From the NCBI GenBank assembly GCA_017531985.1, contig JAFXJY010000043.1:1-64000 (forward strand): a DNA stretch of 64,000 nt, given 5' to 3'. A model generated the notes under the pieces. That model had not been told where the DNA came from, ran no database searches, and was given only the letters and a program-made list of their open reading frames with translations. The number at the start of each line of letters is the position of its first letter. Position 1 is the stretch's first letter. Positions 27,405 to 43,342 of this stretch are shown here, one piece after another. The translations under genes were made by a program, and so were the position numbers. Source of the stretch: Bacteroidaceae bacterium (lineage in GTDB: Bacteria > Bacteroidota > Bacteroidia > Bacteroidales > Barnesiellaceae_A).

Positions 27405-27450
27405 ACAGGAATACTGTGTCGCAACTGTGCAAGGATGAAGAATGATTGGT

Positions 27451-27507
27451 GTCCGATAAAAATTTTTAGAAGGAGTTATTTTTTTGCATTAATGATTTTT
27501 CTCGGAC
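27451..27507 (+). terminator. Possible hairpin end of the efflux operon
   Basis: GTCCGA-TAAAAAT (27451-27463) can pair with the complementary ATTTTTCTCGGAC stretch ending at 27507. The loop is long and holds a run of T (27479-27485). It lies about 50 bases after the last permease gene. It is a weaker structure than the hairpin at 27533-27579. Confidence 0.35.
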
Positions 27508-27532
27508 GATAATAATAAAGAATAACCACTTA

Positions 27533-27579
27533 TGAAGTGACCCCAAAAGTTTTTTGTCTAAACTTTTGGGGTCACTTCA
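27533..27579. terminator. 20 bp perfect hairpin between convergent operons
   Basis: 27533-27552 and 27560-27579 are perfectly complementary around a 7-base loop. It lies between the plus-strand efflux operon and the minus-strand T9SS operon, so it probably ends both. There is no T-tract outside the stem, which is unusual for an intrinsic terminator. The arm sequence TGACCCCAAAAGTTTAGACA recalls, from memory, the terminal repeats of some Bacteroidota IS3-family elements, so an insertion-sequence origin is possible. Confidence 0.6.
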
Positions 27580-27620
27580 AAAAGCAGCCTCTTTTGTTTT
27601 CAATCTCTATTTCATTGCTT

Positions 27621-28760
27621 TTATTTAGTGCGTCGTACCGAGCGAACAGGGGCATTGTCACTCGATGATTTCTGAGGTTTGGGTTTCTTGGCCTTGGCAC
27701 CGCTGCGTGATGACCGCGACTTGGTTTTACTTTCGCCATTATCCTCTTTCTCAACCTTGGCTTCACTCTTTTTCACCGAGCGTTTCTTGTCCTCTTTTTT
27801 CTCGACAACATCTTCACTCTCTCCATCAGCATCACTGTCACCGGTCGCAGCTTCTTCAAGAGCAGCTTTTTCCTCGGGAGTAAGCACCCACAACTGCTTA
27901 TCGAAAGCAGCGAGAGTATTCTCTATACTATCTTGTGCATGACGTAGGAGCGAGTCGGTGGGGAACTGCTGCATGAGCGATTGGTTACGCAGGTTGCGAG
28001 TTTTATATATGTCGCCATCATACATCTGCATCTTGAAGTAATCGTCGTAGTTATATTGCAGTACTTGGTTAGCATCTCCGGTAATGATGTATTGCTGAGC
28101 CATGTAAGGACGCAAGTCGTCATATTTGAGCCAGAACATAGGGTAACGCAAAGGCTCTCCACCGAAGTCACCACTGCGGTGCAAAACAGGACAGATAGCC
28201 TCTATCATTACGTCGAACTTAGATGTACCGCGGTTGAAAGCCCATTTTTCTATAATATAATATGATAACACTTCGTAGCAAGGCACATCGCTCTCATCGA
28301 TGGTAAAGAGAGGATTTTTCTCGGTACTACCTTTTTGCTCGGTATATATAATGGAGAAGCGATCAAGCATTTCTCTCACATTGATTTTATATTTTTCAGT
28401 AAACACCTCACGACCATCGAGATACTCATAAGCAGTTATCTTGTTGTCGGCAAGCAGTCGCATGATAATACGGAAGAGGTTTTGTAACTCTTCGGTAGGG
28501 TCCTCGGGGTAATAGAGCGGAAGATTGGCATCCTTGGTAAGATCGAGCTGACGATACACCACTCGCAACCAAGGAATATCCTTCTCGGCAGGCGAATTAG
28601 GCTCATAAAGTCCCTTGGCACGCACCGAAAGATTATTCTCTTTCTCGGTATTCTTTTTTTCGGTATCACGACCGGCACGTCGCACACCTTGTGCATCGGC
28701 AGCGGTAATGGCAAGCATGGCCATTGCAACAGTAACTATGATAGCACGGAACATTTTCAT
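27621..28760 (-). CDS. gldN: Type IX secretion protein GldN/PorN
   Basis: GldN (PorN) is the periplasmic partner that, with lipoprotein GldK, forms a ring under the outer membrane in T9SS. The 379-residue product has a signal peptide ending AADAQG and the conserved domain around RVVYRQLDLTKDANLPLYYP (about residues 65-84). The last ~70 residues form a strongly basic Lys/Ser/Arg-rich tail after EEAATGDSDADGESED. That tail is low complexity and is probably not part of the fold. An ATG at 28793 overlaps the gldM stop (TAATG) and is an alternative start; 28760 gives a more normal signal peptide. It is the last gene of the operon. Confidence 0.9.
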   Translation of the reverse strand: MKMFRAIIVTVAMAMLAITAADAQGVRRAGRDTEKKNTEKENNLSVRAKGLYEPNSPAEKDIPWLRVVYRQLDLTKDANLPLYYPEDPTEELQNLFRIIMRLLADNKITAYEYLDGREVFTEKYKINVREMLDRFSIIYTEQKGSTEKNPLFTIDESDVPCYEVLSYYIIEKWAFNRGTSKFDVMIEAICPVLHRSGDFGGEPLRYPMFWLKYDDLRPYMAQQYIITGDANQVLQYNYDDYFKMQMYDGDIYKTRNLRNQSLMQQFPTDSLLRHAQDSIENTLAAFDKQLWVLTPEEKAALEEAATGDSDADGESEDVVEKKEDKKRSVKKSEAKVEKEDNGESKTKSRSSRSGAKAKKPKPQKSSSDNAPVRSVRRTK

Positions 28761-28792
28761 ATGATAGTTTTTATGCGTTATATCATTATACA

Positions 28793-30361
28793 TTAATTCA
28801 CTATTACCTCAATAGGTGATAAGTCGCGAGTAACACCATCGGGACCTATCGCTTTGATATTGGATATATAGAAGCGTTTACCTCGACTCAGACGATTGAT
28901 AGCATCACTTTGACGTTTAGAGAAATTGGCACCCTCTGACTTCTCGAGCATGGCGTTACCCATCTGATCGAATGTAACAAGTTCGAAACTCAACACATTG
29001 AACGACACATTGACAAGTCCATCATCAATAGCAGCACCCAATGTAGTAGCACCTCGCAACAAGCCTTTTGAGAATGGTTTTCCGCCTTTATAATGCTGTT
29101 CTTGCCCATTGGCATCCTTATAGGGGATATAGGGTGTAGGGTCGGGCAAACGACGTACGCGGAAAGTTGTACTTGCCACTGTTTGCGTATTGCCATCAAC
29201 AGTAGCCGTTACAGTTATAACCGCATCTTCACCGACATTGGTGGGGCGAGCATCCCAAGCATCACCATTACGAGTCAGTGTACCATTGGTCATCGTGGCT
29301 TGTATGGCATTGTTGGGTATACCGGGTACCGATATGCTCACGGGGTTGGAAATACCTGCATACATGACATTCATCATGGTTGCCGATACGGTGGCAGTAG
29401 GCTCTACGACAGTATAGCTTGATGCGAAGTTGTGACGGGTGGTAGTACCATCGCCATGAGGCACTTCAAGATAACCATTAAAGTCAAATACTCCGGTTGA
29501 GTTGCAGAATATCTCGTATAGGCCATTGTTACCTTCGGGCAATTTCTTCCCATTGATATAAATATCGGGAACTTGCGTGGTATCGATAGCCGCCAACACG
29601 ATGTTAGCCGAGTATTTACTACCTCGCATGATATTCTTGGAGTTGGGGATAACAAAGGCATCCAACTTGTTTACACGCACATCGCTGGCATCAATATTGG
29701 TAATGAGTGTATTGAGTGCCAAGTTCTCCACATAGAGAACATCGCTCTGCATCTTGGTAAGGATGGTAACAGCTGCGACTACGGGCATATTCTCAAATAG
29801 TGTAGTTTCCCACACAATGGGATTAATCTGCTCGGTTCGTGAGTTTATCTTTGTCGACAAGCACTCCTCGACGGTCGCTTTCTTGATAGAATCGGGCATA
29901 AGACCGCTTGCATAGGTACGATACTCTTCGATGGCTTTTCGCAACTTGCCTCCATGCTGCATCGAAGGTGACAGCATCACATACGAAGCAGCTTCAAGAT
30001 CGTCTTGGCTCTTGATATTCTTTATATCGGCATCTTTACCATCGGCCTTGCGGACAATAAGATATTTGAGTGAATCAATATAGTTGTACAATTCGCTTGT
30101 TTTTTCACGCAGTTGAATCGACTCATTGTACCACACACCTCCCTTTTCAGGGTTCTGCTCGTTGAAATCGGCCAGTTGCTGATACAGAGCCTCATTGCGG
30201 ACGGCAGCTGTGGTTGTGGAGCGACCCAAACCCTCCTCGACTTGACGAAATCCGTTGAGGACATCGCTCGACACATTGAGTGCCAACATGGCTGTCAAGA
30301 CGATATACATAAGGTTTATCATCTTCTGCCGTGGAGAGAGTTTTGTGCTATTTCCTGCCAT
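28793..30361 (-). CDS. gldM: Type IX secretion protein GldM/PorM
   Basis: GldM (PorM) spans the periplasm as a dimer and, with GldL, forms the proton-driven motor of T9SS. The 522-residue protein has a single N-terminal membrane helix (about 16-33, INLMYIVLTAMLALNV) and a helical bundle (40-220). Three beta-rich domains follow up to VTRDLSPIEVIVN. The length and the NSTKLSPRQKMINLMY start are typical. gldL ends four bases upstream. Confidence 0.95.
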   Translation of the reverse strand: MAGNSTKLSPRQKMINLMYIVLTAMLALNVSSDVLNGFRQVEEGLGRSTTTAAVRNEALYQQLADFNEQNPEKGGVWYNESIQLREKTSELYNYIDSLKYLIVRKADGKDADIKNIKSQDDLEAASYVMLSPSMQHGGKLRKAIEEYRTYASGLMPDSIKKATVEECLSTKINSRTEQINPIVWETTLFENMPVVAAVTILTKMQSDVLYVENLALNTLITNIDASDVRVNKLDAFVIPNSKNIMRGSKYSANIVLAAIDTTQVPDIYINGKKLPEGNNGLYEIFCNSTGVFDFNGYLEVPHGDGTTTRHNFASSYTVVEPTATVSATMMNVMYAGISNPVSISVPGIPNNAIQATMTNGTLTRNGDAWDARPTNVGEDAVITVTATVDGNTQTVASTTFRVRRLPDPTPYIPYKDANGQEQHYKGGKPFSKGLLRGATTLGAAIDDGLVNVSFNVLSFELVTFDQMGNAMLEKSEGANFSKRQSDAINRLSRGKRFYISNIKAIGPDGVTRDLSPIEVIVN

Positions 30362-30365
30362 GGGA

Positions 30366-31409
30366 TTATGCGTTTACGTCGTTGTTATCGGTTGTATTAT
30401 TCTCGGGTCGTGCCTCGGGTGCGGGTTGAATAGGATTGACAGCTGCTCCTCCCATGGGGTTATACATGTTGATGGTCATGGCTGTAATCATCTTTTCATA
30501 TACCGAGTTGAGTTGTTTCATGTATTGAGCCATACGTTCAGTTTCACGACAGTAGCGGTCGCTGTCGCCCATAGCATTTTCATACATGCGACTGATATTC
30601 TTAATACCGGCATTGACACGATCAATGTTGTCGAGCTGCGAACTTACACTCTTCAATTGTATTTCGTATATCGTGTTCAATCCACTGATATTACGATTGA
30701 GAGCCTCCATTTGCTCTACATATCCGGTCGACTGCTCATTTAAGCCATCGGAGTTGGATGTGATAGCTTGACATGAACCGAGAAGGGTATTAGAGACTTG
30801 GGTGAGAGCCTCGGTGGTGGCACGCAATTGCTCCATCTGAGTGGAGATAGCTGCCAATTGTGAGAGATATTGTTGAGTAGCATCGGTCAGCTCGGCCATA
30901 CGCGACAACTGGTCGGCTGCCGCAGCCATCTTCTGTATACTTTCGCTAAGGCTACGCGAATCTTCTTCGCTGAGGTCTATGCCCTCGGGGATGCCCACTG
31001 CACGACGAGCATCACCGGGCGATACTTGATTGTCGCCTATTATCACACCTTCGGATGTACCTGTGCCACCATTGATGATAACAGTACCTCCGTTACCACC
31101 TACAATACCACCACCGCCGCCAAATTGCGGACGGTCTTCCTCATTGCGAGAGGCAAGTACAGGAAACACATCTTCCCAATGGTAGGACTTTCCGGGGTTG
31201 TCGAATGCCGACAAAACGAACATCAACACCTCAGTACCCATACCCAACGACAACAAGAAGTTGCCACCGGGCAAGTGTAAGAGCTTGAACAATGCTCCCC
31301 ATATAACGATTGCAGCACCTATACTATATGCGAAATTGAAGAATCGTTGACCCTTTTCGCTCGACAAAAATTCGCCTATTTTACTTTTATATTTTTTATA
31401 TTTTCCCAT
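30366..31409 (-). CDS. gldL: Type IX secretion motor protein GldL/PorL
   Basis: GldL (PorL) is the inner-membrane partner of GldM and forms a pentamer through which protons flow. The 347-residue protein has two membrane helices (about 28-46 and 51-69); Glu60 in SLGMGTEVLMF sits in the second, where a glutamate is important in characterised GldL. A Gly-rich linker with GGGGGIVGGNGGTVIINGG follows (about 97-115). A long cytoplasmic coiled-coil (about 150-315) and an Asn/Pro-rich tail complete it. It is in the porP-gldK-gldL-gldM-gldN transcript. Confidence 0.93.
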   Translation of the reverse strand: MGKYKKYKSKIGEFLSSEKGQRFFNFAYSIGAAIVIWGALFKLLHLPGGNFLLSLGMGTEVLMFVLSAFDNPGKSYHWEDVFPVLASRNEEDRPQFGGGGGIVGGNGGTVIINGGTGTSEGVIIGDNQVSPGDARRAVGIPEGIDLSEEDSRSLSESIQKMAAAADQLSRMAELTDATQQYLSQLAAISTQMEQLRATTEALTQVSNTLLGSCQAITSNSDGLNEQSTGYVEQMEALNRNISGLNTIYEIQLKSVSSQLDNIDRVNAGIKNISRMYENAMGDSDRYCRETERMAQYMKQLNSVYEKMITAMTINMYNPMGGAAVNPIQPAPEARPENNTTDNNDVNA

Positions 31410-31444
31410 AATCCGGCAAACATCTATGATATTATACTACTCTA

Positions 31445-32866
31445 TTATTTACTTCGTCCGCGAGCAAATCCCACTTGTGTGCGTACACAACGGAAACCGA
31501 TGTAAGAACGTTGTTCGTTCTGATATTCCCACATACGCAAGTCGGAACGTACATAGTGCGATACATCCTTCCACGAACCGCCACGCACTATCTTACGCTT
31601 CATGCGGTAGGGATCCTCCTTGGCAGCATTATACTTATACTCGGGATTCATATCGCTGGTAATGCGACTCAATGCTTCGTTATAAGAGGTTGATGTCCAC
31701 TCCGACACGTTACCTGCCATGTCATACAATCCGAAATCATTGGGTGTGTAAGTTCCTACACGAGCGGTGATAAGGTGTCCGTCGCGTACATAATCGCCAT
31801 CACCGGGCTTAAAGTTGGCATAAAAACAACCTCTGTCATCGACCGACTCGGTTCCTTGCCAGGGGTACATATTCTCACTATCACCCATGCGTGCAGCAAA
31901 TTCCCACTCGGCCTCGGTGGGCAGACGGAACGGCTCTACTATCACAGGATTACTACCGAGCGATGCTCTATAATATTGTGTACGCCATGCACAGAATGCG
32001 TTGGCTTGATCCCACGATACTCCCACTACGGGATAGTCGTTGTAGCCCGAGTGAGCGAAGTACATGCGTACATATGGCTCGTTATAGGCATTGTCGAAGT
32101 CATTAATCCACACTGTTGTGTCAGGGTAGATGTTTACGATGTAAGTGTTGAGGAAATCAAACTCGCTCGACAACTGGCGTGTGATAGTCTCACGTTGTAT
32201 CTTACCTTCATCATCGATAAAGGCAGTATCCTTCGAAATCATGATAATCTCATCATAGTCGACAGGCACATCGGTATTGAGGTTTCGCAACTCGGGGTTG
32301 AGACGGTTGCGACGCTTCGATGCCTCGGTATAATCGTACACTTCATAGCGATAATTGAGTTGCGACACATCGAGTTCCTTGCGACCGGTTATCGGATTGG
32401 TACGATAAACACTCTCTATGGCACGAGCTTCATCCTCATTGGGGTTACGCCAAGGGATAGCCTTGTTCCAGTTCAAATAGGGCTTGATGGGATTGCCATC
32501 CTTGTCCTCTTCAATCTTGAAAACTTCATTACCTCCGTAAGCAGGGTCGGCCAATCGTTCACGAATGATAGAGTCACGCACCCAATATACAAATTGTTTA
32601 TACTTCGAGTTGGTAATCTCGGTTTCGTCCATGTAGAAAGCATCTACCGATATTCCATGAGCATCCTTAGCAACACCCCACAGGCTATCGTTGTGGGCAG
32701 GTCCCATTTCATAAGCACCACGACTGACCAATACCATACCATATGGGGCTGGTTCAGCCCAAGATATTCCGCTCACACCGGTAACCTCACCCGAAGTCTG
32801 CGAACCCGGGGCACAGGCCATCATCAACGCGGCAGCAGCTATCAAGAATAACAAACTTTTTTTCAT
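31445..32866 (-). CDS. gldK: Type IX secretion lipoprotein GldK/PorK
   Basis: GldK (PorK) is an outer-membrane lipoprotein that forms the T9SS ring with GldN. The 473-residue product has lipobox MMAC (Cys18) and a formylglycine-generating-enzyme (FGE-sulfatase) fold. Evidence for the fold includes GAYEMGPAHND, VSVDAFYMDETEITNSKYK-like and LYDMAGNVSEWTSTSYN segments and a final RSYIGFRCVRT. The fold is not expected to be catalytic in GldK. It starts three bases after porP and precedes gldL by 35 bases. Confidence 0.95.
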   Translation of the reverse strand: MKKSLLFLIAAAALMMACAPGSQTSGEVTGVSGISWAEPAPYGMVLVSRGAYEMGPAHNDSLWGVAKDAHGISVDAFYMDETEITNSKYKQFVYWVRDSIIRERLADPAYGGNEVFKIEEDKDGNPIKPYLNWNKAIPWRNPNEDEARAIESVYRTNPITGRKELDVSQLNYRYEVYDYTEASKRRNRLNPELRNLNTDVPVDYDEIIMISKDTAFIDDEGKIQRETITRQLSSEFDFLNTYIVNIYPDTTVWINDFDNAYNEPYVRMYFAHSGYNDYPVVGVSWDQANAFCAWRTQYYRASLGSNPVIVEPFRLPTEAEWEFAARMGDSENMYPWQGTESVDDRGCFYANFKPGDGDYVRDGHLITARVGTYTPNDFGLYDMAGNVSEWTSTSYNEALSRITSDMNPEYKYNAAKEDPYRMKRKIVRGGSWKDVSHYVRSDLRMWEYQNEQRSYIGFRCVRTQVGFARGRSK

Positions 32867-32869
32867 AAC

Positions 32870-33850
32870 TTACAGTATACGAATACTTTTATGTTTGGTT
32901 TTATTTTTATCTGATAAATCTAATTTCATGCTATATCCCACAAATACTTCATGGCTTCCACTACTGGCTTTCAGCACTGCCGAGACAGGCAAGTCGTAAG
33001 AATATCCGAGGATGAATCCCTTAAATTCGCCTCCAATCATGATGGAAACCGCATCGTTCCAACGGTAGCCAAGACCACCCCAGAAGAACTTATTGTAACG
33101 CAAACGCACCGTTGCTTCGGCCGTAAATACGTTCAAGTCGGTCGACACCATCACTGATGGCTGTATTTCATATAACGGATTTTTTAATGGTATATTGCCT
33201 CCTGCCATAAAATAAAATTGTCGAGGCACAAAAAATTCAAACCCATTCTCACTTGCCGAGCCACTACTGTCATCGTAACGAATGGTTGGCTCGGTGAGAT
33301 GCGTAGCTGACAGTCCTACATAGAAACGGGGATGCATATAATAGAGACCGAATGCAGCATCGAAAGCCATACCCGATACTTCGGTTGTGGGAATGTCTTC
33401 ATCTTCGCCCGGTGGCGTGTGGTGATCGCTCGATGGTATCTCGACCTTCGTTCCGTCAAACTTCTGGTCGACCATGCCTAACTGTACACCAAAACAGAGG
33501 AAACTTTTCTTGATTTTGAGTTTGTAAGCATACTGGGCTCCAAATACCATATTGGAGAACAATCCTTCGTTGGTACTACTGAATGCTATACCCACTCCAT
33601 GATGTCCGCCAAGAAAACGTAACGGCATGTCGGCACGCCCCCAGAATGAGGATGGTGCACCTTCAATGCCCACCCATTGCTGACGTGTACCCACCATGAA
33701 GTTAAGTTTATCGCCCTGACCGGCTGCGGCGGCATTGTAGTAGGATGGCACTGCCCAATACTGCGACAACTGTATGTCGGACTGTGCCTGCATCTTCATG
33801 GGGGCTATGCAAGCTATCAATAGGATAATATGTAGAATGTAACGACGCAT
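32870..33850 (-). CDS. porP: T9SS outer-membrane protein PorP/SprF
   Basis: The 326-residue protein has a signal peptide ending MKMQAQS and the PorP/SprF signature DIQLSQYWAVPSYYNAAAAG. A 14-strand-type barrel pattern follows (YALKLGV-like alternating strands such as KSFLCFGVQLGMVDQ and FGLYYMHPRFYVGLSATH). PorP/SprF proteins sit in the outer membrane and bind secreted substrates or the GldK ring. The ATG at 33850 is preferred over an upstream TTG at 33868. It is the first gene of the T9SS operon; a weak TATAATTG -7-like box lies just upstream. Confidence 0.9.
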   Translation of the reverse strand: MRRYILHIILLIACIAPMKMQAQSDIQLSQYWAVPSYYNAAAAGQGDKLNFMVGTRQQWVGIEGAPSSFWGRADMPLRFLGGHHGVGIAFSSTNEGLFSNMVFGAQYAYKLKIKKSFLCFGVQLGMVDQKFDGTKVEIPSSDHHTPPGEDEDIPTTEVSGMAFDAAFGLYYMHPRFYVGLSATHLTEPTIRYDDSSGSASENGFEFFVPRQFYFMAGGNIPLKNPLYEIQPSVMVSTDLNVFTAEATVRLRYNKFFWGGLGYRWNDAVSIMIGGEFKGFILGYSYDLPVSAVLKASSGSHEVFVGYSMKLDLSDKNKTKHKSIRIL

Positions 33851-33931
33851 TTTCGCAGTATATATCAATTATAATAACTGCAAAAAGTCAATTAAATTGT
33901 ATAGACACGGCTATTTTTTTCCTCGAACAAT

Positions 33932-34612
33932 TTAGTATATCCCGAATCTTGGTTTATTTATGCTATCTATCACTTCTTGATTAATTTTTAGCCAAAGTAG
34001 AACATCTGGATCAATAGAATCTTGATTAATAGAATCTTGTCTAATTGGATCGTACAATTTATTTACTTTATCATGTTCTTTATTTATTTGTTTTTCTTCT
34101 ATCAAATGATTAATTCTGCTATATATCATTCCAACAATAATACCTATAATGACTATTAAGCATATAAATATTATTCTTTTTTTTCGGTTTTATATCAGAG
34201 GATAAAACCTGAGAATTATCTATATTGCAAGAGCCAAGTGCTTTTAGAGACTCTATAAGCACTTAGCTCTGTATTTACGCATTGTACGTTGGTAAATAAT
34301 AAATCTAAAAAGATGTTATTCTCTAAACGAAAATCATTAACTAGGTAAGGAATTATTTTTTTGTTGTTTTTTTTGTGCAAAGAGTATCTCTTTTTGAGTC
34401 CATTGCGACGATGCTGAATGATGAGATGCTATAAATACTACAATATGAGAATCGAGAATATTATTAGCTATTTCGGTAATAAAATTAGAAGAACCATATA
34501 GATTCCTATCTATCCAATAAATAATACCTTCTTTATCAAATTCTTTACATAATTTATCAGCAATAACCTTATCTTTTCGAGAGTAACTAATAAAAACATC
34601 ATATTTAGCCAT
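33932..34612 (-). pseudogene. TIR-domain membrane protein broken by three frameshifts
   Basis: An intact start encodes a TIR domain (MAKYDVFISYSRKDK; Glu75 after SSQW at the NADase position). It ends early at 34337. Stepping one base at the A8 run near 34373 restores KKIIPYLVNDFRLENNIFLD, the normal TIR continuation. A second +1 step near 34250 restores the last TIR helix (VLIESLKALGSCNIDNSQ). A third, at the A8 run 34177-34184, restores RIIFICLIVIIGIIVGM, a membrane helix, then a charged tail ending FGIY at 33932. Three steps return to the original frame. The original was therefore probably a ~225-residue TIR protein with a C-terminal membrane anchor. The DNA is visibly AT-richer than its surroundings. 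Sequencing error in the homopolymers cannot be excluded. Confidence 0.75.
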
Positions 34613-34681
34613 ATGTGTAGTTTTTCATAGTTAAACAATAGTTTATTAATCAAAAGATTTAGCTATCTATTATAACATCAA

Positions 34682-35632
34682 TTAAAATGTGATAATAGCT
34701 CGTGCATAATTCGCTACAACATCCTTACAAAAGCTTTTTTTATTACTTGTTTGTATGTTTACACACAAGGCATATTTCTCACCGTCCTCTTCATCTTCAG
34801 TTGAAGACCAATACCACAACCCAGATAATTCATCTCCATTGTTCTTTTGAAGTGCTGCGTTAATTTTATCACAATTATGATGTATCATTAATAATTCTTC
34901 GACAGCAGGTAAGTACCAATCTGCACCTTCGCTACGACACCATTGTAAAGCAGGATATTTATCTAATCCAAATTGTGCTATCATGTTAGAATTAACATAT
35001 CCGTCAAACTCGTTTAATGCTCCAATAAATACTTTTGCTTTGTATTGTAAAAGAGTACACCATGCTATAACAACTTGATGCATGCTTAGCAATTTACCAT
35101 GTTTGCCATTTTCATTTACATCAAATACAACTCCTTGTATACCTTTGTAATCATAATAATCACCAATTTTATAACACGATGTTTCTTGATATGATTCTAT
35201 AATCATTCTTATTCTTTGTTCAACCAACGTATTAACAGTTAATTTTAGATGCTGTCCTCTAAAAACTTCAAAAAAATTATGTTGTTCTAGTGCTTCTCGC
35301 ACCAATGCTGGACATTTTACAGGAAACGTTTTAAATTCGTTGTCGGGATTAATAGGTATTATTTCCTTTCGCAACTTATATGCATATTCAATTTCTTCTC
35401 TTACCATATCATCTTCATTCTCACATCTTTCTAATGATTTCTTAGACAAAATAAAAATAAAGACTTTTGAATTTTCTATTCCTTTCTTTATTTTTTCTCT
35501 CCAAGAGGAATAATTGCAAGACTCCAAATCAATAAAAACAGTAAAGCCATGGTTTTCTAACAAGAATTGTATTTGTCGTGCAATATCCATACCCCCTTCT
35601 CTTCGATAACTAATAAATATGTCGTGTGCCAT
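34682..35632 (-). CDS. TIR-domain protein with C-terminal Lcl/DUF1566-like domain (second of array)
   Basis: The 316-residue soluble protein starts with a TIR domain (about 1-130): AHDIFISYRREGG, an FIDLESC strand, and Glu80 in the VREEIEYA helix where catalytic Glu sits in NAD-cleaving TIRs. After a linker, a domain at about 155-316 reads IGDYYDYKGIQGVVFDVNEN ... WYLPAVEELLMI ... YWSSTEDEE ... YARAIITF. This matches the Lcl C-terminal/DUF1566-like fold (C-type-lectin related), likely a sensing or ligand-binding module. AT-rich DNA suggests acquisition by transfer. It lies 69 bases upstream of the broken TIR gene and 90 bases downstream of its paralogue, all in one direction. Catalytic activity is inferred only. 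Confidence 0.8.
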   Translation of the reverse strand: MAHDIFISYRREGGMDIARQIQFLLENHGFTVFIDLESCNYSSWREKIKKGIENSKVFIFILSKKSLERCENEDDMVREEIEYAYKLRKEIIPINPDNEFKTFPVKCPALVREALEQHNFFEVFRGQHLKLTVNTLVEQRIRMIIESYQETSCYKIGDYYDYKGIQGVVFDVNENGKHGKLLSMHQVVIAWCTLLQYKAKVFIGALNEFDGYVNSNMIAQFGLDKYPALQWCRSEGADWYLPAVEELLMIHHNCDKINAALQKNNGDELSGLWYWSSTEDEEDGEKYALCVNIQTSNKKSFCKDVVANYARAIITF

Positions 35633-35722
35633 AGTATAATATTCTTTTATTTGTTTTATACAATAAATTGATAATAAGTAACTACCTTCCCTCAGAGTTT
35701 GTAAACTTAATAATTTATATAA

Positions 35723-36658
35723 TCAGAAAGAAGTTACTGCCCGAACAAGGTTCTTGGAATTTTTGGTATTATAGAAACCTGATCCTACAATACTGGCTCG
35801 GAGTTCGTTATACTCGGTCGATGTCCAATATCGGGGTTTGGCTTCTGTACTTAATGGCTTGCCATGTTTCTCCAATGTTGCATTGAGTTTATCACGATTG
35901 ATATATATTGTCATCATCTCTTCACAAGCCGGCAAGTACCAGTTTTTTCCCTTGTTTCTGCACCAAACGAAGGCCGGATATTCATGGCTGTCGTTTCTTA
36001 TCATTACATAATTGGTATTGAACATACCATCATTTCTTGATAGGGCATCGGTCATAATTGCCTCTCCATATTGTGAAATTGTACACCATCGGAGTTGCGT
36101 CTCTTCCAGACTGACCACCTTGCCATGATGACCGTCATCGCTTACCTCAAAGACTACTCCTCGCACACCATTATTATCATAATAGTCACCTACTTGATAT
36201 GTTTTTTCATCCACTTCCATAACAAAAGGCGGCTGCGGAACAGCACCCGCAGTCAGATCTATGTCCAACAACTTGGCTACATTGGTAAGTAGGCTGCCAA
36301 AGTTGTCCTCAGGATGGGGGTATGCATCGATCCAATTGAGATTTTTCAGATAGTATTTTTTGGCACCCTTAAAGTCGGAATCGGATATACGGAACGTGAG
36401 TATGGGTTTCTTGTCCTCACTCGCCAACTCTATTTCGCGGTCGACCTGATCCGATATATTAAATTCGTCTGAGAATACAACGACCATCATACGACTCTTT
36501 TCCAGTGCATCGACAATAGCCCTCGCCCACACGACTCCTTTGGGTATGTCGCGATAGGCTACAAAGCAGCGTATCTTATGCTGTTCGAGATAGGCACAGA
36601 TGGCCTCAACTGTCTTTTGGTCCTTGCTGGAATAACTGATAAAAACGTCGTAGATCAT
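35723..36658 (-). CDS. TIR-domain protein with C-terminal Lcl/DUF1566-like domain (first of array)
   Basis: This 311-residue protein is a paralogue of the next gene. Its TIR domain (1-140) contains MIYDVFISYSSKDQK, VAYRDIPKGVVW and Glu75 in DREIELA, and ends with FGSLLTNVAKLLDID. A proline-containing linker leads to the same C-terminal domain: VGDYYDNNGVRGVVFEVSDD ... WYLPACEEMMTI ... RYWTSTEYNE ... LVRAVTSF. Base composition is closer to the chromosome average than that of its two neighbours. The ATG at 36658 is used; a TTG at 36682 would extend it. A TATCTTTG box (minus strand, 36680-36687) is a good -7 element for the array, although the -33 part is weak. It lies downstream of the rho terminator. 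Confidence 0.82.
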   Translation of the reverse strand: MIYDVFISYSSKDQKTVEAICAYLEQHKIRCFVAYRDIPKGVVWARAIVDALEKSRMMVVVFSDEFNISDQVDREIELASEDKKPILTFRISDSDFKGAKKYYLKNLNWIDAYPHPEDNFGSLLTNVAKLLDIDLTAGAVPQPPFVMEVDEKTYQVGDYYDNNGVRGVVFEVSDDGHHGKVVSLEETQLRWCTISQYGEAIMTDALSRNDGMFNTNYVMIRNDSHEYPAFVWCRNKGKNWYLPACEEMMTIYINRDKLNATLEKHGKPLSTEAKPRYWTSTEYNELRASIVGSGFYNTKNSKNLVRAVTSF

Positions 36659-36733
36659 GATTCGGAATATTTCTTTTTGCAAAGATATGATTTTTTTACA
36701 ATTCTCGGTTATCTTTGTTTCAATAAAAAGAGG

Positions 36734-36767
36734 AATCCCACTGTAAGCAATTGCCTACAATGGGATT
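36734..36767 (-). terminator. Terminator of rho
   Basis: A 15 bp stem with two wobbles (36734-36748 with 36753-36767), a four-base loop, and a T-rich exit on the minus strand. It lies about 30 bases after the rho stop and insulates rho from the TIR genes. Confidence 0.8.
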
Positions 36768-36796
36768 GTCTATTATCAGTTTTTATGAAAGAGTTT

Positions 36797-38845
36797 TCAA
36801 TCGTTGTTCATCGACAATAGGAATTCTTCATTGGTCGATGTACGTTCGAGACGTTCTTTCAAGAACTCCATAGCCTCGACCGAGTTCATGTCGGCAAGGT
36901 AACGACGGAGTATCCACATGCGATTGAGTGTCTCTTTATCTTGCAGAAGATCGTCACGACGAGTGCTGGATGCATTGATGTCGACTGCCGGGAAGATGCG
37001 TTTATTGGAGAGCTTACGATCGAGCTGCAACTCCATGTTACCTGTTCCCTTAAACTCTTCAAAGATAACTTCGTCCATCTTCGAACCGGTATCAATGAGA
37101 GCTGTGGCTATGATGGTGAGACTGCCGCCATTCTCTATATTACGAGCAGCACCAAAGAATCTCTTGGGCTTGTGCAGGGCATTGGCATCGACACCTCCTG
37201 ACAGGACTTTACCTGACGCAGGCGAAACGGTGTTAAAGGCTCGTGCCAATCGTGTGATGGAGTCAAGCAGGATGACCACGTCGTGTCCACACTCTACCAT
37301 GCGTTTGGCCTTTTCGAGAACAATATTGGTTACCTTCACATGGCGTTCGGCCGGCTCATCAAATGTCGATGCTATAACCTCGGCTTTCACGCTGCGTGCC
37401 ATATCGGTCACCTCCTCAGGACGCTCGTCAATGAGCAAGATAATCATATATACCTCGGGGTGATTTTCCGATATCGCATTGGCTATATCTTTGAGTATAA
37501 CCGTTTTACCGGTTTTAGGCTGTGCCACAATAAGTCCACGTTGACCCTTACCTATGGGCGAGAACATGTCGACAACACGAGTAGAAAGGTTACATGACTT
37601 ACCACTGGTGAGGTCAAACTTCTCATTGGGGAAAAGGGGTGTCAAGTGGTCGAAAGGTACGCGGTCGCGAACGAACTCGGGCAGACGTCCATTGATGCGT
37701 TCTACTCCGGCAAGTGGGAAGTATTTTTCTCCCTCCTTAGGAGGACGAATGGGGCCTTCTACAACGTCGCCTGTTTTAAGACCGTAATGCTTGATCTGCG
37801 ATTGCGATACATATATATCATCGGGCGAGGTTAAGTAATTATAGTCGGGCGAACGCAGGAAACCGTAACCATCGGGCATCATTTCCAACACGCCCGAACC
37901 CATGAGAATACCCTCAAAGTCGTAGAGACGTTCATTGGCAAACATTTCATCTCGTGGTTCTTCGTTGCGAGGTTCTTCTTGGTGATTGTTGGCCAACTGC
38001 TTGTTGCGTTTGTTGTTGGACTTATTATTGGACTTATTGTTTTGAGGCTCGTTATTGTTATTCGCCTTATTTTGTGGAGTAAATTGCTGCTTGATGACGT
38101 TTCCGTCCTTATCGCGTGAAATAAATCGTGTGGCTTTGGGGAAAAATGCCGACAGACCGGGTGAAGGTGGCAAAACTTGTTCCTGAACTTGTCGGGGAGC
38201 TTCTTCTTGCGATTGGGGTTCGGCGACTTGCTCGGTTTGTTGCGGTTCAGCATCTGCTACTACCGATGTTGCATCCTCATTCTCAGCAACTTGTTTGGCA
38301 GCATTTTCTTTTTCGGCCTTCGACATTCTCTTACGCGGAGTCTTGACAGGCTTGGTTTCTTGCACTTCGACTTGCTCTATAACCGGTTCGGCGGAAATAA
38401 CCTCATTTACCGACTCGACAATCGGCTCGACAACAACCTCCTCGGCAGGTTTCTGTTTTTTCTTTCGGCCGGGACGACCTTTCTTGGGAGCCTCGGCTAC
38501 AACCTCAGTTGTGGCAACTTCCTCTACTACATTGACTTCGGCAACAACTTCGGCAACAGGCTGCTCTTCATGCTCGATGAGAGTAACGCTATCATCACTT
38601 TGAGGTTGAACCGACTCAACAAGAGTCTCTTCGGCATTTTCATCCTTAGCAGTGCGAGACTTCCTTTTTTTTCTACGTCCTTCTCCACCCTGCTGTGTTT
38701 TACTGGCTGTAATAGCCTGCTCATCAAGAATGATATATACCAAATCTTCAACTTCAATGTTGTTGGATACATTCAAGCCCAATTGAGCTGCTATCTCTTT
38801 CAATTCGAGTAACGTCTTGGCTTTAAGTTCAAAAATGTTATACAT
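36797..38845 (-). CDS. rho: Transcription termination factor Rho with large insertion
   Basis: Rho is a hexameric RNA translocase that ends transcription. The 682-residue protein is about 260 residues longer than E. coli Rho. Order of parts: Rho N-terminal helical domain (1-45); a low-complexity segment (about 50-290) alternating Lys/Arg-rich and Glu/Gln/Val-rich runs plus an Asn-rich [16 protein letters not shown] stretch; the RNA-binding cold-shock-like domain ([20 protein letters not shown]). The ATPase domain has Walker A AQPKTGKT and the Q- and R-loop region. Such insertions are known in Bacteroidota Rho, and related disordered insertions elsewhere can drive condensation. It is monocistronic with a ~130-base leader. 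Confidence 0.96.
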
Positions 38846-38979
38846 TATTTATGTCTTTTTTTCGCAACCGTGCTACTTACAATCTTACTATTGATTGAGT
38901 ATCACCTGCTTAACTTAATATAAGAAATTTGCTGTGAGATTGAGAGGCTTCCGACTGAACACCTCATGAAAAAGTGGTG

Positions 38980-39008
38980 CAAATATACGGTTAATTTTTT
39001 ATTATCAA
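38980..39008 (-). promoter_or_regulatory. Promoter of rho
   Basis: On the minus strand TTG (39006-39008) and TATATTTG (38980-38987) are 18 bases apart, slightly short of the usual spacing. The predicted leader of about 130 bases could allow Rho autoregulation, as in E. coli. Confidence 0.55.
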
Positions 39009-39057
39009 CATTAGAGAGCGGTTATTTGTTGATTTTTTTAACACTTTTTCTATATTT

Positions 39058-40392
39058 CTATTCGTTACACGGCAACGAGCTATGACGCACAACCAACACG
39101 CGTGTTGTCGCATTGGTAATGCGTGCAGTATTATCAGTGCGTTCATCAACTATCCACAATATCTTCTCAGCATCGCACAATATCAAGGCTTTCTCTTTAT
39201 CGACAAGCGAGTACTTACGATCGGCGAAATAGTCGCTCACTTTCTTGCGACCCTTCATCCCGAAGGGAACAAAGCTATCGCCCTTACGCCACCTACGCAA
39301 CATGAGGGGAAACCGTACTTTATCGGCATCCATACATGCCACTTTTCTATCACGTATTATCTCAAAGCCTTCTCGTTCATGCCACTCGATGGTAATACCA
39401 CTTTGCTCGGCAACATCGTCTTCGCTCCATGTGGCCAACACATCATCGGCTTCGAGGTCTCTCAACGGATGCACTATCATATACTTCCGATGGGTAACTG
39501 CTCGATGGGTTGCCGACAGGAATTGCCGCCCCGACTGCTCCCCCACTCGCACCATATCGGCTACCTGCTCTGCCACGAAGCCCAGAGGCGAAACTATCTC
39601 ATGCAGCAAGGTACGAGGTGCCGGAGATGTGTGTAACAACTGCATGTCGATGTACAACTCATCGCCATGCCACTCACTCACACGCCGACGCCACGCATCG
39701 ATAGCCTCACGATAAAATTGCTCAGCATCACGCAGATTCTCGATAGTACGTTCCATGCACGCGTCGACCGCCGGATTTATTTCTCGCAGTAAGGGTAACA
39801 CTTCGAGACGAATTTTATTGCGTGTATAGATGGCTTCGAGATTGGTACTATCGGTAACATATTCGATACCTTCCTCCGACAAATATTGCAACAATTCTTC
39901 ACGCGACACACACAACAATGGTCGCACAATATATCCATTGCGAGGACTCATTCCTGTTACACCCGCTATACCGGTGCCTCGAACAAGATTCAACAAGAGA
40001 GTCTCCACGTTGTCATCACGATGATGAGCCACAGCCACTGCATGTGCATCATGCTCCTTGCGTACACGTTCAAACCATTCGTAGCGTAACTCGCGTGCTG
40101 CCATTTCGATGGAAACGCCCCGCTCCCGGGCATAAGTCACTGTATCGAATTGTGTCTCAACAAACGGCACTTGCAGCTTCCGAGCCACCATAGCTGCATG
40201 ATGGCGATCGCGAATGCTCTCATCACCTCGCAACATAAAGTTACAATGGCAGGCCACACAATCGTAACCCAGCCGCACAAGGACTGACAGCAGTGCCACC
40301 GAGTCGGCTCCGCCACTCAGCCCCACCATCACCCTTGCTCCATCAGGCAATAATTGCTTTCGGACAATATAATCTGCTATGCGATGTATCAT
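39058..40392 (-). CDS. tilS: tRNA(Ile)-lysidine synthase
   Basis: TilS converts the wobble cytidine of tRNA-Ile(CAU) to lysidine, so that AUA is read as isoleucine. The 444-residue protein has the PP-loop SGGADS (about residues 27-32) and the conserved HCNFMLRGDES and AVAHHRDDNVETLLLNLVRG motifs. A C-terminal substrate-binding domain ends near RRWRKGDSFVPFGMKGRKKVSDYF. The ATG at 40392 gives the normal start; the frame is open further to 40425. The gene stands alone between rho and a palindromic promoter region. Confidence 0.95.
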   Translation of the reverse strand: MIHRIADYIVRKQLLPDGARVMVGLSGGADSVALLSVLVRLGYDCVACHCNFMLRGDESIRDRHHAAMVARKLQVPFVETQFDTVTYARERGVSIEMAARELRYEWFERVRKEHDAHAVAVAHHRDDNVETLLLNLVRGTGIAGVTGMSPRNGYIVRPLLCVSREELLQYLSEEGIEYVTDSTNLEAIYTRNKIRLEVLPLLREINPAVDACMERTIENLRDAEQFYREAIDAWRRRVSEWHGDELYIDMQLLHTSPAPRTLLHEIVSPLGFVAEQVADMVRVGEQSGRQFLSATHRAVTHRKYMIVHPLRDLEADDVLATWSEDDVAEQSGITIEWHEREGFEIIRDRKVACMDADKVRFPLMLRRWRKGDSFVPFGMKGRKKVSDYFADRKYSLVDKEKALILCDAEKILWIVDERTDNTARITNATTRVLVVRHSSLPCNE

Positions 40393-40402
40393 ATTCACTT
40401 GG

Positions 40403-40494
40403 CAAAGATACGCATAAGCGAGCAAGAAATATCAAGCTTGCTTGAATATTTTTTTCAGCGAGCGAAAGTATCTTCGCGGGTTACCGCAAAGATA
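40403..40494 (-). promoter_or_regulatory. tilS promoter within an imperfect palindrome with duplicated -7 boxes
   Basis: Two minus-strand TATCTTTG elements occur at 40403-40410 and 40487-40494. Between them is an imperfect palindrome centred on CAAGCTTG (about 40433-40440), whose arms (GCTTGATATTTCTTGCTCGC and GCTTGAATATTTTTTTCAGC) end in AAGATAC/GTATCTT. A third related block, CTTGCTTGATTTTTTTCTTC, lies at about 40521-40540. The proximal box is 10 bases from the tilS start and has a TTG at 22 bases. Confidence 0.4.
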
Positions 40495-40576
40495 GTGAAA
40501 CGTGTGTGAAGATAAAACAATCTTGCTTGATTTTTTTCTTCGCTATTATTGACCAACGATATAAACAGTCAAAAGG

Positions 40577-40607
40577 TTGTTCGTTCGGTTTATTTTGCCT
40601 AACTTCG
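40577..40607 (+). promoter_or_regulatory. Promoter of the AspT-like transporter
   Basis: TTG (40577-40579) and TAACTTCG (40600-40607) are 20 bases apart; the -7 element has one change from TAnnTTTG. Confidence 0.55.
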
Positions 40608-40683
40608 CAGCCGAAATCGAGAGTTGAGCCGAAAGTGGCTTTTTCAATATGTTTTTCAAACTAAATTAATACACGAAAAAAAA

Positions 40684-42351
40684 ATGGAATGGTTATCTGA
40701 TTTAATCAGTGGCACATCTATTGCACACACTGTATTCCTCTATGCTATTGTCATAGCAGTGGGAGTAGTGTTAGGCAAGGTCAAAATCTTCGGTGTGTCG
40801 TTAGGTGTCACCTTTGTACTCTTTGTGGGTATCTTACTGGGACATTTTGGATTATCGGTCGATGGCGAAATACTGCATTTTGTCAAGGAATTCGGACTGA
40901 TATTGTTTGTCTTCTCCATCGGCTTGCAAGTGGGTCCGGGATTTTTTGCATCGTTCAAGAACGAAGGTGTCAAGCTCAACTTGCTTGCCATGGCAATTAT
41001 CGCACTGAACATTATCGTTGCGTTGGTTATCTACTTCTTCGATGACAGTATTGGGTTGATGATAGTGGGTATCTTATCGGGTGCTGTCACTAACACACCC
41101 GGATTGGGTGCCGCCGAGCAAGCTCTCTCCCAACTCTACACCGATGGTATCATCACCGAAGTTCCACAATTGGCATTAGGATACGCCGTAGCCTATCCGT
41201 TGGGTGTTGTGGGTATTATTCTGGCTATGATTATTGTTCGGGCTATTTTCAGGGTTAACTTCCAAGAGGAGACTGACAAGATAGAGCGTGAAAATAACGA
41301 CAGCCAATTAATTCCTCATATTATCACTTATCGCACCGAGAACAAACTCATCGTGGGTCGTACTCTCAGTGAACTTTCGTCGATGATTAATCGTAACTTT
41401 GTGGTGTCGCGTATCAAACGTAATGACGAAATCATTATCCCCAACTCCAAGACAATCCTGCAAGACAAAGACTTACTGCTCACTGTGCTTTCAGAAGCCG
41501 ATGAAGAGGCATTGACAGCCTTTATAGGTCCTAAGATAGAGATGGACTGGGAGGCTATACAAGCACCGGTCATATCGCGTCGCATACTGGTGTCGAAGGA
41601 GGAATATAATGGTCGTAAGATAGGTTCTATGCGTCTGCGTATGGGTTATAGACTGAATGTAACTCGTGTCACTCGTGCCGGTGTCGATCTCTTGGCAAGT
41701 CCCAATCTGGCCTTACAAATGGGCGACCGCATTACCGTTGTGGGTAAAGAGGAGGATATAGACCGCTTGGCCGAAAAATTAGGTAACTCGATGAAGCACC
41801 TCAATCACCCCAATCTGTTTACCATATTTATAGGTATCATGATAGGTGTTATCTTTGGCAGCATGCCCTTCACTGTACCGGGAATGCCTGTTCCATTGAA
41901 ATTGGGTCTTGCCGGTGGTCCTCTTATTATAGCTATCTTAATAGGTCGTTTCGGACACAAGATGCACTTGACCACTTACACATCGACGAGTGCCAATCTC
42001 ATGCTCCGCGAGGTAGGTATCTGCTTGTTCCTTGCCAGTGTGGGTATCAGTGCCGGTGGTGAATTTGTAAAGACCATCATGGAAGGTGGCTTGATGTGGG
42101 TATTGTGGGGATTTCTCATTACCCTCATTCCCCTGCTCATTGTTGGCTCGGTGGGACGTGGATATTATAAATTGAACTATTTCACACTTATGGGACTCAT
42201 GTCGGGAGCCTGCACCGATCCTCCAGCATTGGCTTACAGCAACAAAGTTGCCAACAACGATGCTCCTTCGGTAGCCTACTCAACCGTATATCCGCTCACA
42301 ATGTTCTTGCGTATTCTCACCGCCCAAGTTCTTATATTGGCGTTGGCATAA
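40684..42351 (+). CDS. AspT/YidE-type transporter with RCK_C domains
   Basis: The 555-residue inner-membrane protein belongs to the aspartate:alanine exchanger (AAE/YidE/YbjL) family. It has two blocks of membrane helices (about 15-205 and 385-555) around two cytoplasmic TrkA-C/RCK_C domains (about 215-375; [20 protein letters not shown] and [20 protein letters not shown]). Each membrane half carries the duplicated signature, [17 protein letters not shown] and [20 protein letters not shown]. The ATG at 40684 is preferred over a TTG at 40624. Substrate is unknown; family members exchange amino or dicarboxylic acids. Confidence 0.88.
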
Positions 42352-42366
42352 CACGATACGACACAC

Positions 42367-42410
42367 AACAACGCGGGGTGTGACCTGAATGGTTCACACC
42401 CCGCGTTGTT
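42367..42410. terminator. Terminator between transporter and dedA
   Basis: 17 perfectly complementary bases (42367-42383 with 42394-42410) form a GC-rich stem, and two more pairs extend it towards the loop. It separates two convergent genes. A T-tract is nearly absent, so Rho or the stem alone may act. Confidence 0.65.
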
Positions 42411-42436
42411 ATTCGACTACTTACTGTCAGGCAAGG

Positions 42437-43075
42437 CTACGACTCGGTGGAGGCTTGTGACTTGTGAGTAAAGAATCGTACGATAAAAAATAGTATGACA
42501 AGAACTAACAGCCCCCAAATAACCAACTTCACGATGTGACTAAACTCATCGACCGTAGCATTGAGTTGCTCAGGTGTGACGAGCGAACGCAAGAAGTAAC
42601 CCAACAAAGCAAGTATCGTGTTCCACACTCCTGCACCAATGGTCGTATATAGAATAAACTTGCCAAAGTGCATGCGTGATAGTCCGGCAGGAATGGAGAT
42701 GAGCTGTCTTACACCGGGAACAAGGCGACCGATAAGCGTCGATACAACTCCATGCTTGTTGAAAAATTGCTCGGCACGAGCTATCTTCTGCGAGTTGAGC
42801 AGACACATGTGTCCTACGCGACTATCGGCAAACTTGTAAACGACCGGACGTCCTATCCACTGTGCCAGCAAATAGTTGATAACAGCACCTAAGTCGGCTC
42901 CCATGGTAGCACAAACGATAACCATGACAAGACTTACCTCGCCAAAGTAGGCTGCCGGAGGCACTACTATCTCGGAGGGAAAGGGGATAAATGAACTCTC
43001 GATAGTCATCAACAGAATGATTGTCCACTCATTGAGATTATCGATACACCATTGTATAAAAGGCAGTGATTCCAT
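42437..43075 (-). CDS. DedA-family membrane protein
   Basis: The 212-residue protein is a DedA/SNARE-associated (VTT) family member with four to six membrane segments. The two signatures are present: ESSFIPFPSE near residue 26 and GRLVPGVRQLISIPAG near residue 115, with the functionally important Glu and Arg. DedA proteins are lipid scramblases or transporters that recycle undecaprenyl phosphate or phospholipids. The gene is monocistronic; a TACCTTTG -7 element (minus strand, 43108-43115) precedes it. Confidence 0.92.
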   Translation of the reverse strand: MESLPFIQWCIDNLNEWTIILLMTIESSFIPFPSEIVVPPAAYFGEVSLVMVIVCATMGADLGAVINYLLAQWIGRPVVYKFADSRVGHMCLLNSQKIARAEQFFNKHGVVSTLIGRLVPGVRQLISIPAGLSRMHFGKFILYTTIGAGVWNTILALLGYFLRSLVTPEQLNATVDEFSHIVKLVIWGLLVLVILFFIVRFFTHKSQASTES

Positions 43076-43142
43076 AATATTGTTTCATTTTTTTATTTTT
43101 TGTTCCACAAAGGTAAAACAATCGCATCAATTAGTAAAATTA

Positions 43143-43174
43143 TTGTATAGTTAAAAAAAAAATAAGTATATTTG
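43143..43174 (+). promoter_or_regulatory. Promoter of the WG-repeat gene
   Basis: TTG (43143-43145) and TATATTTG (43167-43174) with a 21-base spacer. The start codon is at 43343, so the leader is about 160 bases long. I see no clear riboswitch in it. Confidence 0.6.
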
Positions 43175-43342
43175 CATCATACAACGTATGCAATGAATCA
43201 TTGCTACTTAGATGTAATGAGGGACGGGGAATAGCATTAAATATATCAAGGGGAAATTGATAGATTTTATAATATCTCAACATCTGTAATTACACAAAGG
43301 GGAATATATTTTATTATCAACAATATCAAAAAACACAAAACT

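What the first reader, a model, noticed from the sequence alone, without database searches (positions are those of the whole stretch)
33932..36658. Array of three TIR-domain genes, two fused to an Lcl/DUF1566-like domain
Three TIR genes lie head to tail between the T9SS operon and rho. Two share an unusual architecture: N-terminal TIR with a glutamate at the NADase position (E80, E75) and a C-terminal GDYY...WYLPA.EE...YW.STE domain. The third had a membrane anchor instead. TIR proteins of bacteria commonly act in anti-phage defence through NAD+ cleavage or signalling. No Thoeris SLOG protein, CBASS cyclase or Argonaute is nearby, so this is not one of those systems as described. The C-terminal domain could be the sensor. 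AT-rich DNA in two of the three suggests horizontal origin. This is my best candidate for an undescribed system.
Basis: partly seen in the sequence, partly recalled or inferred. Interest (0 to 1): 0.7.

Follow-up and report, generated by a model that had tools for sequence, protein, structure and literature searches.

The report
TIR enzymes with a lectin-fold sensor
Two intact genes pair a probable NAD-cutting TIR enzyme with a lectin-fold binding domain; the same domain is shared with kinases elsewhere in this genome, where several copies carry the mutation signature of a reverse-transcriptase hypervariation system, so the pair probably belongs to a set of receptor-type sensors, though these two copies do not themselves look hypermutated.

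Summary
Two of the three TIR genes are real and intact: TIR-A (35723-36658) and TIR-B (34682-35632). Each has an N-terminal TIR with the SARM1-type catalytic glutamate (E75, E80) and a C-terminal Lcl_C/DUF1566 C-type-lectin-fold domain. The third is a frameshifted pseudogene. The flanks are housekeeping genes, with no known TIR defence partner.

The C-terminal domain is the informative part. In the same draft genome it is fused to two more TIR genes and two Ser/Thr kinases; a related Lcl_C subtype is fused to two more kinases and probably two more TIR genes. In seven of these eight other copies the last ~30 residues vary at codon positions 1 and 2 while position 3 is largely kept (89/86/6 in one subset), the footprint of a diversity-generating retroelement (DGR). 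The genome holds one DGR, whose template serves a different (FGE-type) kinase; no template for the Lcl_C copies was found. TIR-A and TIR-B lack the footprint.

Best reading: cytosolic receptor-effectors in which ligand binding clusters and activates a TIR NADase. TIR-CLec and kinase-CLec DGR targets are already described in cyanobacteria and gammaproteobacteria, so this is a new variant of a known kind. The defence role is inferred.

The parts
35723..36658 (-). TIR-A, TIR-Lcl_C protein, 311 aa (ATG at 36658; an upstream TTG at 36682 is also possible)
   Evidence: ORF; TIR_2 77.3 bits; AF2 model mean pLDDT 87.5; full-length homologue L050, 57%; TIR under purifying selection, pN 0.13 with synonymous sites saturated
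36254..36658 (-). TIR domain of TIR-A (residues 1-135); E75 codon at 36434-36436
   Evidence: Z 18 to SPARTA and SARM1 TIR structures; E75 aligns with the catalytic-Glu motif of TIR-1/SARM1
35726..36211 (-). Lcl_C/DUF1566 C-type-lectin-fold domain of TIR-A (residues 150-311)
   Evidence: 4eps Z 14.9 over model residues 147-311; 8q4e (Lcl C-terminal domain) is the top Foldseek row and top profile hit
35747..35812 (-). TIR-A residues 283-304, equivalent of the DGR variable region of the paralogues; no DGR codon signature here
   Evidence: codon tests
34682..35632 (-). TIR-B, TIR-Lcl_C protein, 316 aa, AT-rich
   Evidence: ORF; TIR_2 64 bits; AF2 model mean pLDDT 91.1; 29-32% GC
35183..35632 (-). 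SARM1-type TIR domain of TIR-B (residues 1-150); E80 codon at 35393-35395
   Evidence: top Foldseek rows are human SARM1 and C. elegans TIR-1, 26-31% identity, TM up to 0.86; E80 shares a column with E75
34685..35176 (-). Lcl_C/DUF1566 domain of TIR-B (residues 153-316)
   Evidence: 261 bits to the A1 profile, which includes this sequence; Pfam Lcl_C 26.7 bits, below cut-off; 8q4e in Foldseek
34706..34795 (-). TIR-B residues 280-309, equivalent of the variable region; no DGR codon signature here
33932..34612 (-). third TIR gene: frameshifted pseudogene of the C7/C43 TIR type; only 34337-34612 (91 aa) reads in frame; hydrophobic stretch in the downstream remnant
36734..36767 (-). 15-pair hairpin followed by a T-rich tail between rho and TIR-A, probably the rho-gene terminator
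   Evidence: pattern match only

Best explanation
TIR-A and TIR-B are single-protein cytosolic receptor-effectors. The Lcl_C domain, a C-type-lectin fold, is the ligand-binding sensor. Ligand binding clusters the proteins (Lcl_C of Legionella is a trimer) and so brings the TIR domains together, which then cleave NAD+ or make a nucleotide signal. The likeliest biological use is response to an invader such as a phage, ending in arrest or death of the cell. They belong to a modular set in this genome in which related Lcl_C sensors sit on TIR effectors or on Ser/Thr kinases, and in which most of the other copies have been diversified by a DGR. TIR-A and TIR-B are fixed or ex-members that are not being diversified now. 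Shown here: architecture, fold, catalytic Glu, no strongly hydrophobic segment in TIR-A or TIR-B, sharing of the sensor with kinases, DGR footprint in other copies, one complete DGR in the genome. Inferred: ligand binding, clustering, NADase activity, defence role.
For: Architecture and fold. Catalytic Glu. No long hydrophobic segment in TIR-A, TIR-B, C7 or C43, whereas kinases C16 and C4 have one between kinase and sensor (hydropathy scan). Module sharing: this sensor subtype is also on TIR genes C7 and C43 and kinases C16 and C12. A related subtype is on kinases C4 and C5 and on contig ends C30 and C36, which probably complete the TIR genes cut at C20 and C52; both pairs of ends break at an identical 141 bases. 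DGR footprint: second subtype, codon-position differences 89/86/6; C7/C16/C12 pairs, Fisher p 0.0002 to 0.004 against upstream; C43 has an excess of codons ending in C/T, p 0.002. DGR in the genome: RT, template and in-cis variable region with 13 of 13 changes at template adenines (p 2e-9), plus a remote copy on C15. Purifying selection on the TIR. Rows with other C-termini (WG or Sel1 repeats) on a TIR 71-78% identical to TIR-A's support free recombination of parts.
Against: TIR-A and TIR-B themselves show no DGR footprint, and no template for any Lcl_C copy was found in this assembly or, for L050, in its genome. No ligand, enzymatic or phage data exist. Both proteins have Q or M in place of the W of the WxxxE motif. 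There is no defence-gene neighbourhood at this locus. The architecture is rare: none in the other 392 genomes sampled from the order at the thresholds used.
Confidence: 0.55

Rival explanations
1. They are regulatory sensors of an endogenous signal (envelope stress, cell-cell contact, glycans), not defence proteins. The kinases that share the sensor domain do the same job, as proposed for cyanobacterial DGR kinases.
For: The sensor is shared with Hanks-type kinases, some with a hydrophobic segment that would place it outside the cytoplasm; pathway-tuning hypothesis in PMC7517822; no defence neighbours.
Against: The TIR copies have no hydrophobic segment, so their sensor would be cytosolic; the TIRs resemble NADases; patchy distribution and AT-rich DNA fit mobile conflict genes better than core regulation.
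Confidence: 0.25
2. They are decaying remnants of a formerly DGR-diversified set, with no present function.
For: One of the three genes is broken; neither intact copy shows a fresh DGR footprint; no template found.
Against: Both intact frames are open and fold with high confidence; TIR-A's TIR is 81% identical to L050 with saturated synonymous sites, which is purifying selection.
Confidence: 0.12
3. They are exported effectors acting on neighbouring bacteria or the animal host (many bacterial TIR proteins do), perhaps linked to the adjacent T9SS genes.
For: Adjacent to GldL/M/N and PorP; Lcl_C and its relatives are usually on surface proteins; Legionella Lcl binds host glycosaminoglycans (PMC11162425).
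Against: Both proteins start directly with the TIR, with no N-terminal signal sequence seen, and end in the conserved R-A-[VI]-x-x-F tail of Lcl_C rather than a separate T9SS sorting domain; the T9SS neighbours are core genes; the homologue L050 is not next to T9SS genes.
Confidence: 0.05

Closest known systems
DGR variable proteins with N-terminal TIR or Ser/Thr kinase and C-terminal CLec domain (cyanobacteria, PMC7517822; Thiohalocapsa and other multicellular bacteria, PMC10907252)
   Same: Signalling or effector domain at the N-terminus, C-type-lectin fold at the C-terminus, several unlinked copies per genome, some without a findable template; proposed as sensors of conflict systems
   Different: Bacteroidales-type genome; Lcl_C/DUF1566 subtype; the two window copies lack the DGR footprint; no NTPase, vWA or MoxR partner seen
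DUF1566/Fib_succ_major DGR target proteins of human microbiomes (PMC4159848)
   Same: Same lectin-fold family (4EPS-like) with the variable stretch at the very C-terminus
   Different: The examples detailed there are surface-type (for instance a lipoprotein with Mfa2), not TIR or kinase fusions
SARM1 / C. elegans TIR-1 and bacterial NADase TIRs (AbTir, SPARTA TIR-APAZ)
   Same: TIR fold, catalytic Glu column; TIR-B is 26-31% identical to SARM1/TIR-1
   Different: Different sensor domain; no ARM/SAM or APAZ; activity untested
Legionella Lcl C-terminal domain (8q4e) and Bacteroides fimbrial protein BACOVA_04982 (4eps)
   Same: Closest solved folds of the C-terminal domain
   Different: Those domains sit on surface proteins; here the domain is on a protein with no export signal or hydrophobic segment seen

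Membership tests
DGR target (variable) protein | C-terminal domain of C-type-lectin or Ig fold | tested here: met
   Lcl_C/4eps fold; Lcl_C called C-type-lectin-like in PMC11162425
DGR target (variable) protein | Variable stretch changed at codon positions 1 and 2 with position 3 kept (template AAY codons), in TIR-A and TIR-B | tested here: not met
   C/T-ending codons 0.59 vs 0.55 and 0.53 vs 0.46 in the rest of the gene; position-3 differences not depleted
DGR target (variable) protein | Same test for the paralogues C7, C16, C12, C4, C5, C30, C36 | tested here: met
DGR target (variable) protein | Matching template repeat in the genome | tested here: not met
   None for the Lcl_C copies; draft assembly, 95.7% complete, so absence is not proof. 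The FGE-type target on C4 does have one
DGR target (variable) protein | DGR reverse transcriptase in the same genome | tested here: met
   One RT, on C4, not near the window genes
TIR NADase | Glutamate at the catalytic position of the TIR | tested here: met
   E75, E80
TIR NADase | NAD+ cleavage | not testable with these tools
   needs an enzyme assay
Thoeris | ThsA (SLOG/SIR2 or other effector) next to a ThsB-type TIR | tested here: not met
   Ten neighbours from 26295 to 44353 are T9SS, rho, TilS, transporters or membrane proteins and a WG-repeat protein; ThcB4 model 32 of 220 bits
CBASS / Pycsar TIR effector | Cyclase gene nearby, SAVED or other nucleotide-sensing domain | tested here: not met
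   None among the neighbours; C-terminal domain is Lcl_C
SPARTA (short pAgo TIR-APAZ) | APAZ domain and adjacent short Argonaute | tested here: not met
   only the TIR part matches SPARTA

The most novel reading that the evidence does not exclude
A Bacteroidales-type bacterium carries a repertoire of innate-immune-like receptors in which one hypervariable lectin-fold sensor is swapped between TIR NADases and Ser/Thr kinases, and is diversified in trans by a DGR: a germ-line receptor repertoire in an organism not known to be multicellular. TIR-A and TIR-B would be its fixed members.
Probability: 0.3. Interest if true: 0.75.

Novelty: new variant of a known kind. Interest (0 to 1): 0.5.

Why it matters
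If TIR and kinase effectors share a DGR-diversified sensor in a Bacteroidales-type bacterium, DGR-based recognition inside the cell is not limited to filamentous or aggregate-forming bacteria. It would also give a small, tractable pair of intact proteins (311 and 316 aa) in which to test whether a lectin-fold domain can switch on a TIR NADase, a step proposed for these systems but, in the papers read here, supported by sequence rather than by assay.

Tried and rejected
Template repeat for the Lcl_C copies: no match by BLAST with real variable regions, with predicted adenine-rich templates in this genome and eight others of the genus, by exact pattern in viral contigs, or in L050's genome. DGR cassette just beyond the C12 kinase gene, where the contig ends: only repeat-rich DNA, no RT or template. 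Relatives in viral contigs with the sensor profile: none confirmed. Plasmids: no match; phages: one unannotated 8.3-kb record matching the TIR only. Sixteen loci with the closest DGR RTs in the order (40-54% identical): where a target was seen it was of FGE type, and none was TIR- or kinase-fused by motif scan. Literature: no open-access paper holding both DUF1566 and TIR apart from two versions of the Lcl paper. Rejected: three-gene operon as the functional unit (third gene broken; homologue L050 stands alone). Rejected for TIR-A and TIR-B: 'DGR target', because the codon test was made and not met.

Full report
What is there. On the minus strand between porP/sprF and rho lie two intact genes and one broken one. 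TIR-A (35723-36658) has 311 residues and TIR-B (34682-35632) has 316. The third TIR (33932-34612) changes reading frame at about residue 80 of the homologous C7 and C43 TIRs, in a run of A, and again further down. GC is 27-32% over TIR-B and the third gene against 42-48% around them, which fits acquisition from elsewhere but does not prove it.

The N-terminal domains. Pfam TIR_2 matches both (77.3 and 64 bits, cut-off 28). AlphaFold models have mean pLDDT 87.5 (TIR-A) and 91.1 (TIR-B). TIR-A's TIR aligns with SPARTA and SARM1 TIRs at Z about 18. TIR-B's nearest solved structures are human SARM1 and C. elegans TIR-1 at 26-31% identity. E75 of TIR-A and E80 of TIR-B share a column that aligns with the W-V-H-K-E motif of TIR-1/SARM1, whose glutamate is catalytic (own knowledge; PDB 7cm7 is titled SARM1 E642A). 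The tryptophan is replaced by Q or M, so activity is likely but not certain. TIR-A's TIR is 81% identical to that of L050 with synonymous sites saturated: it is under purifying selection.

The C-terminal domains. Pfam Lcl_C is below cut-off. The profile search puts the Legionella Lcl C-terminal domain (8q4e) first and 4eps among the hits, and structure comparison agrees (8q4e top Foldseek row for TIR-A; 4eps Z 14.9 over residues 147-311). The Lcl paper describes the fold as C-type-lectin-like and trimeric (PMC11162425). DUF1566 is the commonest target domain of DGRs in human microbiomes, and 4EPS was compared there with the DGR target TvpA (PMC4159848).

The same domain elsewhere in this genome. 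The draft genome (2.4 Mb, 53 contigs, 95.7% complete) has nine TIR matches. The TIR-A type of sensor is also on TIR genes at C7 and C43 and on Ser/Thr kinases at C16 and C12. A related Lcl_C subtype is on kinases at C4 and C5 and on fragments at the starts of C30 and C36. C20 and C52 end inside TIR genes, in an identical 141 bases; C30 and C36 begin with another identical 141 bases. This suggests two TIR-Lcl_C genes that the assembler could not resolve; the joins were not made and are not proven. Hydrophobic segments between kinase and sensor occur in C16, C4 and the DGR kinase, none in the four complete TIR copies.

The DGR link. On C4 a complete DGR lies together: a kinase-FGE target, an accessory gene, the RT and a template. 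Template and target differ at 13 positions, all adenines in the template (p 2e-9); a second, remote target is on C15. For the second Lcl_C subtype, pairwise differences in the last stretch fall 89/86/6 on codon positions 1/2/3. Against their upstream parts the pairs C4-C30 and C5-C36 give p 1e-7 and 5e-6. For C7, C16 and C12 p is 0.0002 to 0.004. C43 shows only an excess of codons ending in C/T (p 0.002). Ordinary drift or selection does not keep position 3 while changing 1 and 2; DGR mutagenesis of AAY codons does (variable positions almost exclusively first or second in PMC10907252). No template for these copies was found. A comparable situation is reported in Thiohalocapsa, where some targets have no match elsewhere in the assembled genome and long reads revealed variants with the missing parts (PMC10907252).

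What this means for the window. TIR-A and TIR-B fail the codon test. They are members of the architecture, not demonstrable DGR targets. I therefore do not file them as DGR variable proteins. The statement that holds is narrower: they share domain and architecture with copies that were diversified.

How it probably works. Shown: a TIR with a catalytic Glu, a lectin-fold domain, no signal sequence or strongly hydrophobic segment seen. Inferred: the lectin-fold domain binds a ligand in the cytosol, its oligomeric state changes, the TIR domains meet and cleave NAD+. A defence use is the likeliest but rests on analogy with bacterial TIR systems and with published DGR-linked conflict systems (PMC10907252, PMC7159879). 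Pathway tuning, proposed for cyanobacterial DGR kinases (PMC7517822), remains a fair rival.

Distribution. The TIR-Lcl_C pairing was not seen in the other 392 sampled genomes of the order at the thresholds used (only the loci fetched were inspected for TIR or kinase motifs). In the species-level genome collection one full-length relative appeared, L050 (57%). Others share a 64-78% identical TIR with WG or Sel1 repeats instead. Elsewhere in the order TIRs carry repeat domains (TPR-, Sel1- and MORN-like, judged by eye) or an FGE domain. TIR and sensor are thus freely recombined parts.

Scores. Interest 0.5: a clear extension of a published idea to a Bacteroidales-type genome, with the strongest evidence in the paralogues rather than in the window.

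Noticed in passing
L031 4885-8572 (own genome C4, about 66.9-70.6 kb): Complete DGR: kinase-FGE target, accessory gene, RT and template; the kinase has a hydrophobic segment before the variable domain. A remote FGE target lies on C15 (L122).
   Followed up: partly
L031 11921-17348 (own genome C4): A 1382-aa ORF with a Cas9-like start, followed by ORFs that look like cas1 and cas2, a few kb from the DGR; identified by eye only.
   Followed up: no
L026 7214-9934 (own genome C4): Single 906-aa protein with transglutaminase-like, protein kinase and TIR domains.
   Followed up: no
L025 8003-9088 (own genome C1): Macro domain fused to a TIR domain, 361 aa; could sense or remove ADP-ribose products.
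   Followed up: no
L035 3641-4309 (own genome C33): First residues of a TIR joined directly to an Lcl_C domain, apparently a deletion or recombination scar; its last stretch is only weakly DGR-like (p 0.06).
   Followed up: partly
window 43343-44353 (+): WG-repeat protein of 336 aa close to the TIR genes; WG-like repeats are the alternative C-terminus of TIR-A-like TIRs in L051 and L053.
   Followed up: no
window 31445-32866 (-): T9SS-operon protein (GldK-like by position) carries an FGE-sulfatase domain, the other lectin-fold family used by DGR targets; here an ordinary T9SS component.
   Followed up: no
L024 14828-15477 and L031 8600-9900: Similar mosaics of short GC-rich repeats (GCGTCCCTACCTCAGGAGAAAACACAGGGGCGAAAATGG and others) follow the C12 kinase gene and the DGR.
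   Followed up: no
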